A stretch of DNA of 7,124 nucleotides, from contig JAPPMR010000582.1 in the NCBI GenBank assembly GCA_028818995.1, forward strand, positions 1 to 7,124. The letters run 5' to 3'. The position numbers and the translations under genes are program-made. Source of the DNA: Candidatus Poribacteria bacterium (lineage in GTDB: Bacteria > Poribacteria > WGA-4E > WGA-3G). The stretch's first letter is position 1. Each line of letters begins with the position of its first letter. The notes under the pieces were generated by a model. The model was not told the DNA's origin. It searched no databases and was given only the letters and a program-made list of their open reading frames with translations. This document shows, one piece after another, positions 2 through 7,124 of this stretch.

Positions 2-640
2 GTATGTATAGGTGCAATCTTAGTCTTGGCCCTGATTTACATAATTTCTCTAATAATGGAATCATCAACTGAGATCCGAGAATATGCGCGAAAATCCACT
101 GGATGGGGAATGTATATAGTACTTGGAGTTAGCTTTTTGGGAATATTAATTTGGCCGTCTCAAACAAAAACGGATCTATACAGAATGCCCTTTGCTCTGG
201 CTTTGTGTATTGGAATGCAATATTATCCACTTGTGTTTTACCGGTTTACCAGCTTGAATGATGCGACTGAAAGTCAGTCAATTGAAAGAACTGTTGAAGG
301 ACACAAAGCAGCTATAATCAACTTAGTTATTGAATCGTGGCGTTTTGCCAAAAACTATGAACGCATGCTTAATCGACTCAATACTAATCAGACAAAACGG
401 TATACAAGCCAGTTACAGCAATTTGTAAAAAAGGCAGAAGAATCCCTTGCGGATGTAGGTTTGCGTGTGGTGAATGTTGAAGGGTATCCTTATGATCCCG
501 GTATGGCTGCCACACCGCTTAACATTGAAGATTTTGACCCAGACGATGAATTAGTCGTTGATCAAATGCTGGAACCGATTATAATGGAAGGAACGGTTTT
601 AGCAAAAACAGGAACGGTACTTTTAAGGAGAAAAGATTAA
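2..640 (+). CDS. Membrane protein with putative GrpE-like C-terminal domain (5' end missing)
   Basis: The reading frame is open to the first bases of the window. The codons before the TTG at 26 encode hydrophobic residues that continue a membrane helix (VCIGAILVLALIYIISLIM, 2-58), so the gene almost certainly starts upstream and 26 is not its real start. Counting from 26, a second hydrophobic segment lies near residues 27-43 (MYIVLGVSFLGILIW) and a possible third near 54-74. A soluble charged, mostly helical region follows from about 85 to 145. The last ~60 residues contain a YDPG motif, an acidic stretch (FDPDDE), then LEPIIMEGT and a short beta-like end TGTVLLRRKD. That order (Asp-Pro motif, acidic segment, terminal strands) recalls the beta-wing of GrpE nucleotide-exchange factors, and a gene next to an Hsp70 would suit that role. 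The resemblance is weak and by eye. The stop overlaps the Hsp70 start by one base (TAATG), implying translational coupling. The gene is secure; the function is a guess. Confidence 0.85.
   Translation, partial: VCIGAILVLALIYIISLIMESSTEIREYARKSTGWGMYIVLGVSFLGILIWPSQTKTDLYRMPFALALCIGMQYYPLVFYRFTSLNDATESQSIERTVEGHKAAIINLVIESWRFAKNYERMLNRLNTNQTKRYTSQLQQFVKKAEESLADVGLRVVNVEGYPYDPGMAATPLNIEDFDPDDELVVDQMLEPIIMEGTVLAKTGTVLLRRKD
625..630 (+). promoter_or_regulatory. Ribosome-binding site for the first Hsp70 gene
   Basis: AAGGAG lies nine bases before the ATG at 640, inside the last codons of the membrane-protein gene. It is a near-perfect Shine-Dalgarno sequence and supports both the choice of start and coupled translation across the one-base overlap. 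Confidence 0.8.
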
Positions 641-1755
641 TGGAAAATTATATCGGTATTGATTTAGGAACAACAAACAGTGCTATTTGTACCTTTGATA
701 AGGATAAAGAAACACAACAGACTCGTGTTTGGAAAAGTCCAGAACAAAACGATGTAACCCCGTCTGCTATCTATATTGACAGACGTGGAAATGAATATGT
801 AGGTCAAAGAGCATACAATGCTGCCCTACGCAGTCCAGATAATTGTGCAACATTATTCAAGCGTTTCATGGGAACAAGCACACCCATTGAACTGTCAGCG
901 GTTAATCACACTTTTACTCCAGAGGAATGTTCTGCCAAGATATTGAGAACATTGTTTGGATACCTTCCTGAAGAAATTAGAAATTCACCAGAAACAGGCA
1001 CTGTGATTACTGTTCCTGCTGCGTTCGATCTGGGACAAAAAAATGCGACAATGGCAGCTGCAGAATTAGCAGGGATTGGTAAAGTTGAACTTGTTCAGGA
1101 ACCGGTTGCAGCAGTGATGAGTTATATGAAAGCAACTGGCGGCAATAATGGTATATTTTTAATTTACGATCTTGGTGGTGGAACTCTGGATATCGCAATA
1201 GTTGAAAGTATCAAGAAGAGGGTTGCTATACTTGCACATGGTGGAATTCAGATGTGTGGAGGACGCGATTTTGATCGTAAACTTGTTGACAATATTGTCA
1301 AGCCTTGGCTCCATGAGAATTTTGACTTGCCTGACGACATGGCTAATAAAAAGTTTAAATCTCTATTACCTCTTGCAACTTGGGCAATTGAAAAGGCAAA
1401 GATAGAACTCTCAGCAAAAGATGAGGCGATGATTAGCCTTTCTGAAGTTGAGATCCGCACTAACGATCTGAATGGTGACGAGATTTATCTTGAGATTCCC
1501 TTGCATCGACACACTTATGACGAATTGATTTCGGATCAAATCAATGAAACGATAGATGCAGCAAGGGAAACACTATCAAAAACTGGATATGCTCCTAACG
1601 ATGTGCAAAGTATTGTCTGGGTTGGAGGTCCCACACATTACAAACCACTAAGAGATAAAGTTGCATTTGAACTTGGAATTAAGGGAGATAAATTAGATGT
1701 AAACCCTATGACCGCAGTCGCTGAAGGTGCAAGTATCTTTGCTGAGTCCATTACG
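640..1755 (+). repeat. Duplicated Hsp70 ATPase-domain segment, copy 1
   Basis: This stretch is homologous at DNA level to 3254-4366. Similarity begins at the two start codons and ends just after the shared GASIFAESI coding segment. Copy 1 is longer by six bases near 700 and shorter by three near 1340. It is a domain-sized tandem duplication, not a mobile element: no terminal repeats or transposase flank it. Confidence 0.9.
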
Positions 1756-3237
1756 GAATGGATCAACAAAGATGATATGAGAGCAAAAGATAACGATGAT
1801 ACAAAGGTGTCTACAGAAGAACTTGCATTCACTTTTGTGACACCGAATCAAGGAAGAACTCCAGATGATACTTCCAAGATTATCGCACGTGTAGATGGAC
1901 AAATTCCAACTGACTATGTGTTCCAAGTCGACGGTCTTGAAGATGGATCGACTTCAGGAAGACTTCCACTCAAACATGGACAAACCGTTGACGTAAATTT
2001 GACGAAGCCAGGAGAAAATACATTTGAAATTGTAGTTTATGATGCTACAGGAAATACGATTAAACAGGACAAGATTGTTATCACAAAAACAGTTGCCAAC
2101 ATAGATGAGATTCCTTCCTCACATCCAATTTTCGTGGAGGTCGTGAGAAAAATTGGAGGTAGTTCTGTTCCAGGATATCTTGTTAGGGAAGGGGATAAGC
2201 TGCCTAAGAATGGGGAATTAATTCTTAAGGCTGGTGAATTACTTGAGGCTGGTTCAAGAAATTCGCTGAATTTTAAAATATGGGAAGGTGAAATTGATGA
2301 TTATATTTCTGATAACCGTCCTCTCGGATTATTCCAAATAATAGGTACAGATCTTACTGAAGGGGCAATTCCTGCTAACACTGACCTAAAATTTTCTTAT
2401 GAGATACGTAGTGGAGGATACATTAAATTTGAAGTTGAAGTTGGAAGTCAGGTAATTCCCAAAAAATTCGACGGTTCCTACAATTATAAAGAGGAATCAA
2501 CTCCATCAGACGCTGCTCAAATTGCTGATGAAGGAATCCAAATACGCAAACGCATTGACTACATTCTTAAATCAGTTAAAGAGCAAAAACTTGATCTTGA
2601 TGAAGAAAGTAAGAAGAAACTGAATAAAGCATGTGAGAAACTGGAATCTGCAATAATGCTGAATCCTGAAGAATCTAACACTGAAATGATACAAGAAGCA
2701 TATCAAGGAATCTTGCAGGTTAAACAACATTTCTACCAAGTAAGAAAAGATAATCGCAAAGAAATTCAACAGAGTGAACTTAACGATGCAGTCAAGTTTT
2801 TCGATTTGTATAGTAGACGGTTTGCCCGTTCATCGGAAGCGACAGAATTTGACAAACTTGCTGAAACAGCACAACGTTCCATTGACAATAATGTTGATGA
2901 TTTCAACGAACATCTGAATGAACTTTGGCTTAGATATTACCAGATTCTATGGCGTCAGAGCTGGTTTGTTGTTGAACAGTTCAAGTATTACGCAGATTCT
3001 CCTCATCTATTTGCAGATCAAGACCGTTTTGAAGAACTTGTCCATATTGGAAATAAACTCATGGAGCATCCAGATATTAAACACATAACAGATGGAATAA
3101 GGGAAGCAACAATTAAAAGCGAGGTGGTTGACCAACTTCGTCAGATTGTTTTTCAGATTATGGATATTCCGCGCATTAGTGGAGTTGCATCTCATGACGA
3201 GATGCGTAGTCTAATTACTAATATTCTTGCAGGATAA
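640..3237 (+). CDS. Hsp70-family chaperone with intact ATPase and extended C-terminus
   Basis: This is an ATP-driven Hsp70 (DnaK/HSPA superfamily), expected to bind and release client proteins in the cytoplasm. The nucleotide-binding domain spans about residues 1-370. Phosphate-1 motif IGIDLGTTNSAI is at 5-16; the probable catalytic lysine is K74 (ATLFKRFMG); E154 is in VQEPVAA; phosphate-2 motif YDLGGGTLD is at 176-184, with the conserved D177 and T182; GGRDFDR is at 207-213; the adenosine motif VGGPTH is at 328-333. All key ATPase positions known in DnaK are present. An acidic linker and a beta-rich, possibly Ig-like segment (about 405-482) follow, then a region resembling the Hsp70 substrate-binding beta domain (about 495-605). 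A helical C-terminus of ~245 residues (620-865) completes the protein. At 865 residues it is far longer than the ~640 of DnaK, and the usual DnaK hydrophobic linker (VLLLDV) is absent. It is therefore a specialised paralogue, not housekeeping dnaK, and I give no symbol. Its ATPase domain is duplicated in the next gene. Confidence 0.96.
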   Translation: MENYIGIDLGTTNSAICTFDKDKETQQTRVWKSPEQNDVTPSAIYIDRRGNEYVGQRAYNAALRSPDNCATLFKRFMGTSTPIELSAVNHTFTPEECSAKILRTLFGYLPEEIRNSPETGTVITVPAAFDLGQKNATMAAAELAGIGKVELVQEPVAAVMSYMKATGGNNGIFLIYDLGGGTLDIAIVESIKKRVAILAHGGIQMCGGRDFDRKLVDNIVKPWLHENFDLPDDMANKKFKSLLPLATWAIEKAKIELSAKDEAMISLSEVEIRTNDLNGDEIYLEIPLHRHTYDELISDQINETIDAARETLSKTGYAPNDVQSIVWVGGPTHYKPLRDKVAFELGIKGDKLDVNPMTAVAEGASIFAESITEWINKDDMRAKDNDDTKVSTEELAFTFVTPNQGRTPDDTSKIIARVDGQIPTDYVFQVDGLEDGSTSGRLPLKHGQTVDVNLTKPGENTFEIVVYDATGNTIKQDKIVITKTVANIDEIPSSHPIFVEVVRKIGGSSVPGYLVREGDKLPKNGELILKAGELLEAGSRNSLNFKIWEGEIDDYISDNRPLGLFQIIGTDLTEGAIPANTDLKFSYEIRSGGYIKFEVEVGSQVIPKKFDGSYNYKEESTPSDAAQIADEGIQIRKRIDYILKSVKEQKLDLDEESKKKLNKACEKLESAIMLNPEESNTEMIQEAYQGILQVKQHFYQVRKDNRKEIQQSELNDAVKFFDLYSRRFARSSEATEFDKLAETAQRSIDNNVDDFNEHLNELWLRYYQILWRQSWFVVEQFKYYADSPHLFADQDRFEELVHIGNKLMEHPDIKHITDGIREATIKSEVVDQLRQIVFQIMDIPRISGVASHDEMRSLITNILAG

Positions 3238-3253: not shown

Positions 3254-4366
3254 ATGGAATATTATGTCGGCATTGATTTAGGAACAACAAACAGTGCTAT
3301 TTGTACCTACGATAAGGAAACACAACAGACTCGTGTTTGGAAAAGTCCAGAACAAAACGATGTAACCCCGTCTGCTATCTATATTGACAGACAGGCAAAT
3401 GAATATGTAGGTCAAAGAGCATTAAATGCAGCCCAGCGTAGTCCTGATAATTGTGCAACGTTATTCAAACGTCTTATGGGAACAAGCACGCCAATTGAAT
3501 TGTCAGCGGTTAATCGCACACTTACACCAGAGGAATGTTCTGCAAAGGTTTTGAAAACATTGCTTGGTTACCTTCCAGAAGAGATTAGATATTCCCCTTA
3601 TACAGGTACTGTGATTACTGTTCCTGCTGCGTTCGATCTGGGACAAAAAAATGCGACAATAGCAGCTGCAGAGATGGCAGGAATTGATAAAGTTGAACTT
3701 GTGCAGGAACCGGTTGCCGCGTTGATGAGTTATATGAAAGTCCGTGGCGGCACTGATGGAATCTTTTTAATTTACAATCTTGGTGATAGCACACTGGATA
3801 TTGCTATTGCCGAAAGCATCAGAGAGCAGGTAGCAATCCTTGCACACGGTGGAATACAAATGTGTGGTGGACGAGATTTTGACAGAGCAATTGTTGACAA
3901 TATTGTCCGACCTTGGCTACATGAAAATTTTGCATTGCCTGACGACTTATCCGTAAATCCAAAATACAAACACGCCCTACGTCTTGCCACGTGGGCAACT
4001 GAACTAGCAAAGACAGAACTCTCTGCAAAAGATAAGGCGACGATCAGTCTTTCTGAAGTCGAGATGTGTACAAATGATCTCAAAGGTGATGAAATATATC
4101 TCGAGATTCCTTTGCATCGACACACTTATGACAAATTAATTGAAGATCAGATCAACGAAACAATAGACGCTGCATGGGAAACACTTTCAAAAACAGGATA
4201 TGCCCCTAACGATGTACAATGTATCGTCTGGCTTGGTAAAGTTACTCAATATAAACCTTTAAGGGACAAAGTTTCTTTTGAACTCGGTATTAAGGGAAAC
4301 ACATTAGATGTAAACCCTATAACTGCTTGTGCTGAAGGGGCAAGTATCTTTGCTGAATCCATTGAT
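3254..4366 (+). repeat. Duplicated Hsp70 ATPase-domain segment, copy 2
   Basis: This is the partner of 640-1755. Two exact runs stand out: 76 bases (709-784 equals 3317-3392) and 53 bases (1000-1052 equals 3608-3660). Intervening DNA differs at many third-codon positions. Beyond 4366 the two genes have unrelated sequence. Confidence 0.9.
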
Positions 4367-5692
4367 TGGGGGACTGAAAGTTGGTCAAAACAAGAGACCA
4401 TAGAAAAAGATATATTTTATCGTCGAGAACAGATATTTGAAAGTCATCCGGATATAGATATTTTAAATAATCCATTTTTTATTTTGAAAGCGACACAGCA
4501 AATTGATAAGCAAAGAATTATAGAGCAAGCAGAAGAACAGAGTCTATTTTTAGACCAAGAAAAATGTCGCAATGTGCAGAATATGCTGATATTTCCCCGC
4601 AAACGTATATCTGCTGAGATAGCATGGCTGCCCGGAGTGCCGCCTGAACGCATTTATGATATATTGGTGCTGTTAACATCATCCGCTGGAAATTGCCTTG
4701 GCAGTAGAATGCCCACGTCTATAACCCCAGCTGATTCACTTGCCGCTGTGTTATCACGTATGCCTTATGCAGATACATACAACATCGCTGACGAAGTTTT
4801 AGATCTATTGAAAATATCTGAGGACAGTTTTATTGAAGGACATCCGATTGAAATAGATAACTTTGTGGAAGTTAGCAAGTTTCTCGGATTTGATAAACTG
4901 AGTCCTATTGCACGTGCTAATCTGATCGCTGCAAGAATGCTTCGTTTACCTGAATATTTATCTGACGTTGTCCCTGAGTGGATACTGGCATTAGCACAAA
5001 CTTATGATAAAATTAATCCATCAGAAGTACGCAAAATTCTCAACGTTGAACGCCAAGAGTCAGGATTTCCAGAAATAACGGGTCTTTCAGATATAGAATC
5101 AGCAATTCTGAATATTAGGCATTATTATAAACAAGTTATCAAGTTTGTTCTGGAAAGTATATATTTTCCGAAAGAACGCGTTCAAGCTGTTATGATGGTA
5201 GTTGAATCCGTAAACGATAATGATTCATCCAATTTACCAATTCTAATTGAATACGCAATTGATTCTTATGAAGATGGTGCAGAGATGTTTCTTGAAAAAG
5301 AGGAAAAAAAGATTGAGGAATATGACAAAAAACTGCGAATTGCTGCGGAGTATGAGGAAGATGAATTGACTTTTTCCCGGATGGTAGACGATTTAAATGA
5401 TACTGTCAAAGATTGGGGTATCATAGCACAACCTATCCAAGAAAATAAAAGAAGGCAAGGTTTACGATATACCGCAAGTCACGATGTGTCAGAACGTGTC
5501 CGTATATTAGCTATTGTCTTAGCTAATGAATATGACAAACTTAATTCCTCACAACAAATTTTAAAAACGTTAAAAGAAGTGTTCGCGGATTTCCCTGAGA
5601 TTACTGAACGTATCACTGCTGATCTTGAAACACTAAATAAAATTACGCAACAACGTGAAGACAATTCTCAAATATCACTCTTGGATAATTGA
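3254..5692 (+). CDS. Hsp70 ATPase domain with degenerate motifs fused to J-like module and helical tail
   Basis: The start is taken at ATG 3254 because MEYYVGIDLG aligns exactly with MENYIGIDLG of the preceding gene. The frame is open back to a TTG at 3227 overlapping that gene, but those nine residues have no counterpart. The protein is 812 residues. Residues 1-370 are an Hsp70 nucleotide-binding domain with phosphate-1 (IDLGTTNS), K72 and E152 kept. Phosphate-2 reads YNLGDSTLD (174-182) instead of YDLGGGTLD, and the adenosine motif reads LGKVTQ (327-332) instead of VGGPTH, so ATP binding or hydrolysis is probably weak or lost. No substrate-binding domain follows. A short linker leads to a J-like module (about 401-461; NNPFFIL, QAEEQSLFLD, RISAEIAWLPG) without an HPD tripeptide. 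Then comes a helical region (550-640) and one copy (about 682-797) of the WGIIAQPIQ-type repeat found in the next gene. Only 16 bases separate it from the first Hsp70 gene. It may be a pseudo-chaperone or an adaptor for the active Hsp70. Confidence 0.93.
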   Translation: MEYYVGIDLGTTNSAICTYDKETQQTRVWKSPEQNDVTPSAIYIDRQANEYVGQRALNAAQRSPDNCATLFKRLMGTSTPIELSAVNRTLTPEECSAKVLKTLLGYLPEEIRYSPYTGTVITVPAAFDLGQKNATIAAAEMAGIDKVELVQEPVAALMSYMKVRGGTDGIFLIYNLGDSTLDIAIAESIREQVAILAHGGIQMCGGRDFDRAIVDNIVRPWLHENFALPDDLSVNPKYKHALRLATWATELAKTELSAKDKATISLSEVEMCTNDLKGDEIYLEIPLHRHTYDKLIEDQINETIDAAWETLSKTGYAPNDVQCIVWLGKVTQYKPLRDKVSFELGIKGNTLDVNPITACAEGASIFAESIDWGTESWSKQETIEKDIFYRREQIFESHPDIDILNNPFFILKATQQIDKQRIIEQAEEQSLFLDQEKCRNVQNMLIFPRKRISAEIAWLPGVPPERIYDILVLLTSSAGNCLGSRMPTSITPADSLAAVLSRMPYADTYNIADEVLDLLKISEDSFIEGHPIEIDNFVEVSKFLGFDKLSPIARANLIAARMLRLPEYLSDVVPEWILALAQTYDKINPSEVRKILNVERQESGFPEITGLSDIESAILNIRHYYKQVIKFVLESIYFPKERVQAVMMVVESVNDNDSSNLPILIEYAIDSYEDGAEMFLEKEEKKIEEYDKKLRIAAEYEEDELTFSRMVDDLNDTVKDWGIIAQPIQENKRRQGLRYTASHDVSERVRILAIVLANEYDKLNSSQQILKTLKEVFADFPEITERITADLETLNKITQQREDNSQISLLDN
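4463..5650 (+). repeat. J-like/helical-tail module, copy 1
   Basis: This part of the second Hsp70-type gene encodes residues ~404-800, which are homologous at protein level to the start of the next gene (5717-6718). Shared strings include RISAEIAWLPG, ARAN, EWILA, SGFP.IT, AQPIQ and KEVFA. Compared with the next gene it carries about 62 extra residues between WLPG (461) and ARAN (553). Confidence 0.85.
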
Positions 5693-5698
5693 CGACAT

Positions 5699-5705
5699 AA
5701 GGGAG
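5699..5705 (+). promoter_or_regulatory. Ribosome-binding site for the downstream TTG start
   Basis: AAGGGAG sits five bases before TTG 5711 and just after the TGA stop of the previous gene (5690-5692). It decides the start of the last gene. The first in-frame ATG (5825) would remove the first 38 residues, including the conserved NPF..L motif at residues 6-11. Confidence 0.7.
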
Positions 5706-5710
5706 TAGGT

Positions 5711-7124
5711 TTGGACCTATTAAAAAATCCTTTTCATATTCTGCGTGCTACAACGCGAGACGATAAGATTAAAATAATAGATCTTGCAGAAGAGCGGACT
5801 CTGTTATCAGAGGACGACGAGTGTATGGAGGCACAGTCTACATTGGCACGTCCACAAAATCGGATCTCCGCTGAAATTGCTTGGTTGCCCGGAGTTAATC
5901 CAGAACACGTTGATTCATTGTTAAAACAGTTAGATTCTCCGTACCAAAACTTACTGAACATTACCGATCTTCCACCACTTGCACGTGCTAACGCCCTAAC
6001 TGCTGGATTGTCACGCCTCTCAAATATGGCATCTATTAACCTTGTGGAGTGGATTCTCGCAATTTCTCACACTTATGAAAGAATTGATCCTGAAGAAGTT
6101 AGGGAAACACTTAACGAAGAACGCAATATATCGGGCTTTCCTCAAATTACAGATATATCCGTGATAACTGCCGAAATTCAAAACCAAAGACGTTACTATA
6201 GTCAAACACTTTCCTCTGTAATCAACAATCTATCCGTAACTGAGCGTGCAAGAATATTAACTTTAACACTTGAGACAGTAATAGGTAATAGTAACAACCG
6301 ATGTCCTATATTGATTGATGACCTAATTCAGTCGTATGAAGTCGAGGTCGGGGATGATTTAGAAAAGAAACAGAAAATTATTGAAGCACAAGACGAAAAA
6401 CTCCGAGTGATGGCGGATGCAAAAAATCCAGATACTGAACTCAAACCAATTGTGAATCAACTCATTCAAACCGTTAAAGAGTGGGACACCATTGCACAAC
6501 CGATTCAACTGAGTAAAAGAAGTAGAGGGGAACGACACACCGCCAGTTTTAAAATTGCAGAACTTCTTAGAATATTGGCTGCTGATCTTTTAGGTGAATA
6601 CAGAAAGTTTGATTTCTCTCTGAAAATCCTAAATATGCTCAAGGAAGTATTCGCTGAAGTGCCTGAACTTGCTGAACCTATAACTGCAGACTTAAAGTTT
6701 TTAGAGGAAAAAATACCAATTGCAAGAGGCGTGGAAAAATTTGAAGAAATTAAGGAACAGGTTGAGAAACTTAAGGAAGCAGCGGATGCAAAAAAACCTG
6801 ATTATACTTTAACACCGATGGTAAATCAACTGGTACAAACCGTCAAAACATGGGATGCTTCTGCACAACCTTTTGAAGCAAACGACAGTGTAGCACTTCT
6901 TGTTAGAAGTATAGCACTTCATCTCTGGAATGAACATCAAAAACTTGATTTCGCAATACAGATTACAAACATCCTCCTTGAAGTATTTGCGAGGGTTCCT
7001 GAAGTAACTAATCGACTTGCCGAGGACAGAAAGACATTACAGAAGCAAGCAATCATTGCTAAAGAATTAGAAAAATTTGAAGAAATTAAGGAACAGGTTG
7101 AGAAACTTAAGGAAGCAGCGGATG
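5711..7124 (+). CDS. J-like module protein with tandem helical repeats (3' end missing)
   Basis: The open frame runs from TTG 5711 to the last base, giving 471 codons without a stop. Translation begins MDLLKNPFHILRAT, aligning with DILNNPFFILKAT at residue 402 of the preceding protein. The J-like module spans about 1-61 and ends in the identical string RISAEIAWLPG (51-61). No HPD is present, so it is not a classical DnaJ. A second shared helical region (about 91-170) includes ARAN, VEWILAISHTY, EVRETLNEER and SGFPQIT. Repeats follow: unit 1 at about 219-341, unit 2 at 342-453, and unit 3 starting at 454 and cut by the window end. Each begins with a charged heptad-like segment (F344, I347, V351, L354, A358), followed by VNQL..TVK.WD..AQP and an amphipathic VFA.VPE segment. 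No signal peptide or membrane helix is seen, so it is probably cytoplasmic. The gene lies 18 bases after the previous stop, in the same frame. A co-chaperone or scaffold for the neighbouring Hsp70s is the likeliest role, by inference; no catalytic motif is visible. Confidence 0.88.
   Translation, partial: MDLLKNPFHILRATTRDDKIKIIDLAEERTLLSEDDECMEAQSTLARPQNRISAEIAWLPGVNPEHVDSLLKQLDSPYQNLLNITDLPPLARANALTAGLSRLSNMASINLVEWILAISHTYERIDPEEVRETLNEERNISGFPQITDISVITAEIQNQRRYYSQTLSSVINNLSVTERARILTLTLETVIGNSNNRCPILIDDLIQSYEVEVGDDLEKKQKIIEAQDEKLRVMADAKNPDTELKPIVNQLIQTVKEWDTIAQPIQLSKRSRGERHTASFKIAELLRILAADLLGEYRKFDFSLKILNMLKEVFAEVPELAEPITADLKFLEEKIPIARGVEKFEEIKEQVEKLKEAADAKKPDYTLTPMVNQLVQTVKTWDASAQPFEANDSVALLVRSIALHLWNEHQKLDFAIQITNILLEVFARVPEVTNRLAEDRKTLQKQAIIAKELEKFEEIKEQVEKLKEAAD
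5717..6718 (+). repeat. J-like/helical-tail module, copy 2
   Basis: This is the protein-level duplicate of 4463-5650. The interval between WLPG (61) and ARAN (91) is only 29 residues. DNA similarity is clearly lower than between the two ATPase domains, so this duplication is probably older or less homogenised. Confidence 0.83.
6365..6733 (+). repeat. Protein repeat unit 1 (about 123 residues)
   Basis: This is the first unit of the repeat in the last gene: EKLRVMADAKNPD, then VNQLIQTVKEWDTIAQPIQ, then KILNMLKEVFAEVPE. It is about ten residues longer than unit 2 because of an extra SKRSRGERHTAS-like stretch, which is also present in the homologous region of the preceding gene (KRRQGLRYTAS). 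Units with the insert are probably the ancestral form. Confidence 0.75.
6734..7069 (+). repeat. Protein repeat unit 2 (112 residues)
   Basis: This is the second unit: EKFEEIKEQVEKLKEAAD, then VNQLVQTVKTWDASAQPF, then ITNILLEVFARVPE. Its first 55 bases (6734-6788) recur exactly at 7070-7124, setting a period of 336 bases (112 codons). Confidence 0.8.
7070..7124 (+). repeat. Start of repeat unit 3, exact 55-base copy of 6734-6788
   Basis: This is identical to the first 55 bases of unit 2 and ends at the final base of the window. The gene therefore continues into at least a third unit of unknown length. Confidence 0.9.

What the first reader, a model, noticed from the sequence alone, without database searches (positions are those of the whole stretch)
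3254..5692. Pseudo-Hsp70: ATPase domain with broken phosphate-2 and adenosine motifs fused to a J-like module
The sequence shows YDLGGGT changed to YNLGDST and VGGPTH changed to LGKVTQ relative to the neighbouring copy, while the rest of the fold stays closely similar. In DnaK the aspartate and glycines of phosphate-2 and the GG of the adenosine motif contact nucleotide. The whole substrate-binding half is missing and replaced by a J-like module and helical tail. An Hsp70 ATPase domain joined in cis to a J-like module is not an arrangement I know as common. I infer a regulatory partner of the active Hsp70, for example a heterodimer or ATP-insensitive anchor.
Basis: partly seen in the sequence, partly recalled or inferred. 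Interest (0 to 1): 0.82.

Follow-up and report, generated by a model that had tools for sequence, protein, structure and literature searches.

The report
Pseudo-Hsp70 fused to helper-like module
A chaperone gene has been copied next door, its ATP pocket repeatedly damaged while most of the rest is kept, and the copy joined to a helper-like module, suggesting that an ATP-less dummy chaperone works as a docking partner for the real one.

Summary
Gene 3254-5692 is an Hsp70 ATPase domain, 82% identical to its neighbour's (640-3237), with YNLGDST and LGKVTQ, no substrate-binding half, and a helical module behind. It is not a strain oddity: 70 further proteins share the order (two are named, both Candidatus Poribacteria). 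The exact letters vary, but 64 of 68 scorable fusion copies have lost a phosphate-2 glycine or the second adenosine-motif glycine (usually to Asp or Glu), against 2 of 43 neighbour-type copies. Glu171, Thr199 and Asp201 equivalents are nearly always kept. Trees point to gene conversion between the two domains, yet pocket differences stay on the fusion side. dN/dS between the window's copies is 0.16. So this looks like a maintained pseudo-ATPase. The module is only weakly J-like: no HPD in 125 modules examined, and 43 of 43 neighbour Hsp70s lack DnaK Arg167. Nine loci read outside this group carry GrpE-like gene, one Hsp70 and module gene, without a pseudo-copy. Best reading: a one-chain analogue of yeast Ssz1-Zuo1 that docks the active Hsp70. 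That step is inferred. The main rival is a slowly decaying duplicate. New variant of a known kind.

The parts
2..640 (+). 5'-cut ORF: hydrophobic, membrane-like N-terminal part (judged by eye), then a GrpE-like C-terminal part (about 290-637)
   Evidence: translation; NCBIfam GrpE E 0.003 and Pfam GrpE E 0.095, both far below cut-off; hhalign with GrpE E 0.00038 as a single comparison, probability 36%; 48-52% identical to the small gene before Hsp70 in L001, L003, L005, L006 and 21-23% in L007, L008
640..3237 (+). Hsp70 with intact ATPase motifs and its own C-terminal half (active-type neighbour)
3254..5692 (+). The fusion: pseudo-ATPase domain plus helical J-like module, 812 aa
3254..4369 (+). 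Hsp70 ATPase-domain copy, residues 1-372
   Evidence: 82% identical to the neighbour; dN 0.099, dS 0.631 by NG86
3773..3793 (+). Altered phosphate-2 motif YNLGDST
4232..4249 (+). Altered adenosine motif LGKVTQ
4319..4321 (+). Ile356 in place of Met (DnaK D368 position), the conserved column most often changed in fusion copies
4427..5689 (+). C-terminal all-helical module, residues 392-812
   Evidence: AlphaFold2 pLDDT 87.9; no PDB match at E <= 0.001
4454..4636 (+). J-like N-terminal piece of the module (NPFFILKATQ...PRKRISAEIAWLPG), no HPD
5711..7123 (+). Second, unfused copy of the module (TTG start, runs off the window)
   Evidence: 39% identical to 401-794 of the fusion

Best explanation
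The fusion is a maintained pseudo-Hsp70 co-chaperone. Shown by sequence: its ATPase domain is a close copy of the neighbour's, and across relatives it repeatedly lacks pocket residues while most other conserved positions stay. Supported by trees: gene conversion with the neighbour. Inferred: the pocket no longer cycles ATP; the Asp or Glu that replaces the second adenosine-motif glycine may stand in for nucleotide charge and hold the lobes in one fixed state; this dummy domain docks on the active Hsp70 (as Ssz1 docks on Ssb, or DnaK on DnaK in the ATP form) and/or on the GrpE-like exchange factor, and so presents the attached J-like module to the active Hsp70. It would act as a one-chain analogue of Ssz1 plus Zuo1, using a contact that needs neither HPD nor the Arg167 site.
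For: Fusion order in 71 rows, the window's included. Pocket lost in 64 of 68 scorable fusion copies against 2 of 43 neighbours. Loss is focused: contacts 20% mean loss against 4.5% for other conserved columns, and 98 of 122 columns invariant in neighbours stay at 95% or more. Fusion ATPase domains are not one clade (AU p 8.6e-6; 5.6e-4 without pocket columns), as conversion would give; over 9 independent contrasts the acidic 329 falls on the fusion side in 6.5 on average and on the other side in 0. Window dN/dS 0.16 by NG86, 0.12 by YN00. The neighbour Hsp70 lacks DnaK Arg167 in 43 of 43, as do 6 of 6 copies aligned from other loci, matching the missing HPD. P0013 joins the same module to an Hsp70 with intact motifs, placing module and Hsp70 in one unit. 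Ssz1's ATPase domain binds Ssb(ATP) near Zuo1's J-domain (PMC8476630, passages).
Against: No interaction or nucleotide data. The J-like label rests on weak similarity. Module genes without the ATPase domain are scattered among fusions (12 label changes on 90 of 120 rows), so the pseudo-domain is dispensable in some lineages. Main catalytic residues are kept in most copies, so some may still bind nucleotide; P0043 is nearly canonical. In the most alike pair, P0037/P0107, 9 of 11 differences lie in 323-359, and in P0044/P0114 all 16 lie in 3-28 or 318-359: conversion tracts that happen to stop short of the pocket explain these pairs without selection on it. Phosphate-2 contrasts alone fall short of significance.
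Confidence: 0.5

Rival explanations
1. Decaying duplicate: an ATPase-domain duplication landed in front of the module gene; the module is what matters, and the domain erodes slowly while gene conversion keeps it looking like its neighbour.
For: Unfused modules interleave with fusions; P0174 keeps only the tail of the ATPase domain and P0185 only the linker; fusion copies vary more than neighbours; in the two most alike pairs the differences sit in blocks, as tract ends would leave them.
Against: Window dN/dS 0.16 (one pair, averaged over both copies); E171 equivalent kept in 66 of 66; loss is focused on the pocket and repeats the same letters (D or E at 329 in 50 of 71), though Gly to Asp or Glu needs only one base; 64 of 71 fusion rows reach the start of the domain.
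Confidence: 0.22
2. Hsp110-like exchange factor: the fusion's ATPase domain clasps the neighbour's and opens it; the module is a lid-like arm and not a J analogue.
For: By analogy only: Sse forms transient heterodimers with the ATPase domain of canonical Hsp70 through its own ATPase domain and lid (PMC8476630, passage); the long helical module could play the lid's part. No call here singles out this reading.
Against: Sse binds ATP (PMC8476630, passage), whereas this pocket is altered; the operon already carries a GrpE-like gene; the module also exists as a separate gene beside Hsp70 in the nine other loci.
Confidence: 0.13
3. Still an ATPase or ATP binder with changed kinetics or another ligand.
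For: D8, K70, E171, T199 and D201 equivalents mostly kept; CnuD Hsp70 homologues with degenerate motifs are predicted by their authors to bind but hardly hydrolyse (PMC11090510, passages).
Against: Charged or bulky residues in the glycine motifs of most copies; P0014 and P0016 carry D8Y and other phosphate-1 changes.
Confidence: 0.15

Closest known systems
Ribosome-associated complex Ssz1-Zuo1 with Ssb (yeast)
   Same: An atypical Hsp70 that does not cycle is bound to a J protein and docks the canonical Hsp70 (PMC8476630, passages)
   Different: Here the parts are one chain, the J piece has no HPD, the substrate-binding half is gone, and the pocket is altered where Ssz1 stays ATP-bound; no ribosome link is known; homology of the arrangement is not claimed
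Second Hsp70 'sans its peptide-binding domain' in GAP1-N2 GTPase conflict systems (Kaur et al. 2020, PMC7159879; one section read, passages)
   Same: Bacterial loci with HSP70, GrpE and, in a subset, a second Hsp70 lacking its peptide-binding half; a DnaJ domain in the same loci
   Different: There the DnaJ domain is on an FNIII protein and a GTPase is central; I saw no GTPase in the 7.1-kb window; that section mentions neither pocket loss nor such a fusion
Sse/Hsp110
   Same: Divergent Hsp70 that pairs with an active Hsp70
   Different: Keeps ATP and a substrate-binding half; not fused to a J-like module
Pam16 (Tim16), J-like protein without HPD
   Same: Degenerate J-like module thought to regulate (recalled; search listing only)
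   Different: Pairs with the J protein Pam18; not fused to an Hsp70 domain
CnuD Hsp70 homologues of CoCoNuT systems (PMC11090510, passages)
   Same: Degenerate Hsp70 motifs in a bacterial system
   Different: They keep a substrate-binding unit and sit with McrB/McrC proteins

Membership tests
Hsp70 (PF00012) | Hsp70 ATPase domain | tested here: met
   E 1.5e-45, residues 5-368
Hsp70 (PF00012) | Substrate-binding half behind the ATPase domain | tested here: not met
   Pfam match stops at profile position 373 of 599; the rest is the module. The neighbour's match also stops at 386 of 599, though it has its own C-terminal half
Hsp70 (PF00012) | Canonical nucleotide-contact glycines | tested here: not met
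Hsp70 (PF00012) | ATP binding and hydrolysis | not testable with these tools
   Needs purified protein
J-domain proteins | HPD tripeptide | tested here: not met
   0 of the 125 modules caught by a pattern among 187 fetched proteins
J-domain proteins | J-domain profile match | tested here: not met
   No Pfam DnaJ hit for the window proteins (E up to 1) or 10 relatives (E up to 0.5); hhalign with six J-domains E 0.013, probability 3.3%
J-domain proteins | Four-helix J fold | tested here: inconclusive
   Helices at module 16-19, 28-38, 44-55, 57-66 with a short loop at the HPD place; whole-module fold search gave no clear match
Ssz1-Zuo1 (RAC) | Non-cycling Hsp70 stably joined to a J protein | tested here: inconclusive
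   Joined in cis; altered pocket; J identity weak
Ssz1-Zuo1 (RAC) | Binds canonical partner Hsp70 at the ribosome | not testable with these tools
   Needs pull-down or cross-linking
Hsp110/Sse | ATP-bound, extended substrate half, exchange activity | tested here: inconclusive
   Hsp70-type substrate half absent; activity not testable here
GrpE (for ORF 2-640) | GrpE profile above cut-off | tested here: not met
   17.1 bits against cut-off 194; Pfam 12.8 against 25.8; relative in L001 14.4 bits; no NCBIfam hit at E 0.1 for the L001 and L004 relatives
GrpE (for ORF 2-640) | Remote profile similarity | tested here: inconclusive
   hhalign E 0.00038, probability 36%, 96 columns; cross-controls E 0.12 and 0.7; no solved-structure sequence match to GrpE
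GAP1-N2 GTPase conflict systems | GAP1-N2 GTPase gene in the neighbourhood | tested here: inconclusive
   None among the four window proteins scanned; the window is only 7.1 kb

The most novel reading that the evidence does not exclude
A bacterial phylum has built, independently of eukaryotes, a pseudo-Hsp70 plus J-like co-chaperone in one chain. The pseudo-domain carries its own ligand mimic (Asp/Glu at the second adenosine-motif glycine) and is kept in one permanent nucleotide-like state to template a heterodimer with the active Hsp70. Gene conversion keeps the docking surfaces matched while selection keeps the pocket broken. The unit belongs to a mobile GrpE-like/Hsp70/J-like machine that may serve in anti-phage or stress defence.
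Probability: 0.25. Interest if true: 0.82.

Novelty: new variant of a known kind. Interest (0 to 1): 0.62.

Why it matters
The best-studied pseudo-Hsp70 partners (Ssz1, Hsp110) are eukaryotic. Here a bacterial lineage offers dozens of natural fusion copies, and at least 23 pairs of fusion and neighbour domain, alike except where it counts in the ATP pocket. That lets one ask directly which Hsp70 functions need nucleotide cycling and which need only the domain's surface. The HPD-less module beside an Arg167-less Hsp70 also points to a J-type contact that does not use the textbook HPD-Arg pair.

Tried and rejected
Whole genome of the window: none held. Rfam: nothing at gathering score. Promoter and terminator scans no better than shuffles. 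Tandem repeats in 5700-7124: none at score 30. PADLOC: the window Hsp70 has only a 38-residue match to a candidate model (E 1.1e-4); no PADLOC hit at E 0.01 for the L004 GrpE-like, Hsp70, peptidoglycan-binding or module proteins. Solved-structure sequence search with the GrpE-like and module alignments: no meaningful match. Phage records: 36 with a match, all under 60% identity and none covering 80% (10 rows listed). Viral contigs with the fusion alignment: no relative. Fold search of the module model: no match at E <= 0.001; VIA rows are generic helical assemblies, and the absence of a J-domain row shows nothing. A Mann-Whitney test on paired differences over all columns was not significant (p 0.108); only conserved columns show the focus. 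The neighbour's C-terminal half could not be shown to be a DnaK-type substrate domain (hhalign E 0.24). Literature: 12 papers hold both Poribacteria and Hsp70, none about this gene by title and abstract start; no natural Hsp70-J fusion in the rows listed (20 of 3,045; 12 of 27); nor in the rows. These are listings, in open-licence PMC only.
Full report
What is there. The window reads, on the + strand: a 5'-cut ORF with a hydrophobic N-terminal part (by eye) and a GrpE-like tail (2-640); an Hsp70 with intact motifs (640-3237); the fusion (3254-5692); and a second, unfused copy of the fusion's module (5711 onward). Neighbouring genes overlap by one base or lie under 20 bases apart, as in an operon. 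The fusion's first 372 residues are 82% identical to the neighbour's ATPase domain. Its last 420 residues are 39% identical to the following ORF over 401-794. Pfam finds HSP70 in the first part only. The window's contig is 7,258 bases long, so little lies beyond it.

The finding is a family, not a strain quirk. Protein searches gave 71 rows, the window's included, with a piece of this ATPase domain followed by a piece of the module, plus P0013, which is counted apart. Sixty-four of the 71 reach the start of the domain. Only two bear a name, both Candidatus Poribacteria, so the window's origin there is inferred. One search listed the best 120 of 7,805 hits, so the family may be larger. Neighbour-type Hsp70s of 820 residues or more numbered 43 in that list; 6 shorter ones were left out of the counts. 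One of those partners (P0076) is only 500 aa.

The pocket is lost family-wide. Of 68 fusion rows that cover both motifs, 25 keep GGG in phosphate-2, 15 keep GG in the adenosine motif and 4 keep both; of 43 neighbours the numbers are 42, 42 and 41. Of the four fusion rows with both motifs, P0014 has D8Y, T12R, N13Y and T180I, P0032 has T11V, P0066 has Tyr at 356, and only P0043 is close to canonical. At position 329 (DnaK G342) fusion rows carry E 26, D 24, G 15, K 3, N 2, R 1; neighbours G 42, D 1. The window's own N175, S179 and K329 are rare (4, 5 and 3 of 71).

The loss is focused. I listed 23 nucleotide-contact positions from memory of Hsc70 structures and checked their DnaK equivalents by alignment. 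Among 210 columns conserved at 95% or more in neighbours, contacts are lost in 20% of fusion rows on average and other columns in 4.5%; 7 of the 11 columns with at least 25% loss are contacts (p 1.9e-5). The test treats columns as independent. A test on paired differences over all columns was not significant (p 0.108). The equivalents of E171, T199 and D201 are almost never lost, and K70 changes only to Arg (10 of 64).

Gene conversion. On a tree of the 46 ATPase domains of the 23 pairs, fusion copies do not form one clade: 12 label changes, 8 forced by well-supported branches, AU p 8.6e-6. Without the pocket columns it is 13 changes, 9 forced, AU p 5.6e-4. In the window itself, DNA identity between the copies runs from 0.98 (codons 21-40) to 0.68 (codons 221-240 and 321-340), as patchy exchange would leave it. 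In 9 independent fusion-neighbour contrasts on supported branches the acidic 329 lies on the fusion side in 6.5 on average over 200 pairings and on the neighbour side in none (median p 0.03); Met356 loss 7.4 and none; Pro330 loss 6.6 and none; phosphate-2 loss 4.6 and none, short of significance. Either conversion tracts spare the pocket or it is re-broken afterwards. Against selection as the only cause: in P0037/P0107 (97% identical) 9 of the 11 differences lie in 323-359, and in P0044/P0114 all 16 lie in 3-28 or 318-359, as tract ends alone could leave them. Other pairs, such as P0023/P0104, differ throughout. Between the window's two copies dN is 0.099 and dS 0.631 (NG86; 0.094 and 0.772 by YN00). 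If one copy drifted freely I would expect a ratio near one half or more (inference). This is one pair, and the ratio averages both copies.

How the fusion arose. In a quick, midpoint-rooted module tree (90 of 120 rows; 30 were dropped because a start pattern failed or the piece was short, the window's own among them) unfused modules branch near the base and also among the fusions; the fused label needs 12 changes, 11 forced. P0174 keeps the tail of an ATPase domain and P0185 the linker. P0013 carries the module behind an Hsp70 with intact motifs and its own C-terminal part. The likeliest course is that the module gene is older, the ATPase copy was placed in front of it, and it has been lost again in places. 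Some 'unfused' rows may be gene-calling or frameshift effects; I had no DNA for them.

The module. AlphaFold2 on 63 sequences gives an all-helical model with pLDDT 87.9. It resembles nothing in the PDB at E <= 0.001. Its first 60 residues echo a J-domain in pattern (NPFxILxAT...I...LAEE...L.NPRKRISAEIAWLPG), but a profile comparison with six J-domains gives only E 0.013 and probability 3.3%, against cross-controls of 0.12 and 0.7. HPD is absent in the 125 modules that a pattern caught among 187 fetched proteins. On the other side, the position of DnaK Arg167, which pairs with HPD (recalled), is not Arg in any of 43 neighbours or of 66 fusion rows with a letter there, and is Ala or Ser in six Hsp70s from other loci. 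Both halves of the textbook contact are missing together.

Wider context. One viral-collection contig found through the module (L001), two more found through the GrpE-like gene (L022, L023) and six plasmid loci (L003-L008) carry GrpE-like gene, Hsp70 ATPase domain and module gene: 9 of 9 with in-frame queries (first run), and each whole record has one Hsp70 match. The six plasmid loci were picked from the 13 records that had both Hsp70 and module hits, so only L001, L022 and L023 test the linkage. All 13 plasmid records with a module hit are among the 15 best Hsp70 records listed. L002 and L021 are further cuts of the L001 contig. In L003 the Hsp70 frame is interrupted (577 aa open). Seven of the nine also have an AAA+ ATPase gene between Hsp70 and module; the two alphaproteobacterial loci do not. 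Surroundings include Tn7-like transposition genes (L003, L004), Zorya genes (L005) and a DrmC-like protein (L006). A defence role is possible but rests on company alone. None of these records has a second Hsp70 match, so the pseudo-copy is so far seen only in the family.

How it most likely works. Shown by sequence: pocket loss, conservation of most of the rest, fused module, linked GrpE-like gene. Supported by trees: conversion. Inferred: no ATP cycle; docking on the active Hsp70 or on the GrpE-like protein; presentation of the module. The nearest tested parallel is Ssz1, whose ATPase domain binds Ssb in its ATP form near Zuo1's J-domain (PMC8476630, passages). A bacterial second Hsp70 without its peptide-binding half, in loci with GrpE and DnaJ, was reported in GAP1-N2 systems (PMC7159879, one section read); that precedent lowers novelty. 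I rate maintained pseudo-ATPase as likely (about 0.8) and the docking mechanism as open (about 0.5).

Limits. No genome of the window's organism was held, no DNA of a relative's fusion locus was read, and the genome scan was lost to machine faults.

Noticed in passing
window 2-640: Hydrophobic stretches (by eye) precede the GrpE-like part, suggesting a membrane-anchored exchange factor; the relatives in L001 and L003-L008 are about 120 aa and lack them.
   Followed up: partly
window 5711-7123: The unfused module ORF repeats a stretch (EKFEEIKEQVEKLKEAAD) near the window's end; one search shows a second alignment block, the tandem-repeat search found none.
   Followed up: partly
L001, L022, L023: Contigs of the viral collection carry this chaperone cluster; L001 also has a WYL-domain gene, a weak TerB match and a helicase-like ORF by eye; they may be bacterial or mobile-element DNA and not virus.
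   Followed up: no
L003 11995-14492: In the Aeromonas plasmid the Hsp70 is annotated in pieces, next to Tn7-like and mercury-resistance genes; described only.
   Followed up: no
L004 14491-15927: The AAA+ ATPase between Hsp70 and module is distantly similar to IetA anti-phage ATPase models and to PAN/FtsH types.
   Followed up: no
P0084, P0107: Two neighbour-type Hsp70s carry fusion-like pocket changes, as if converted in the reverse direction.
   Followed up: no
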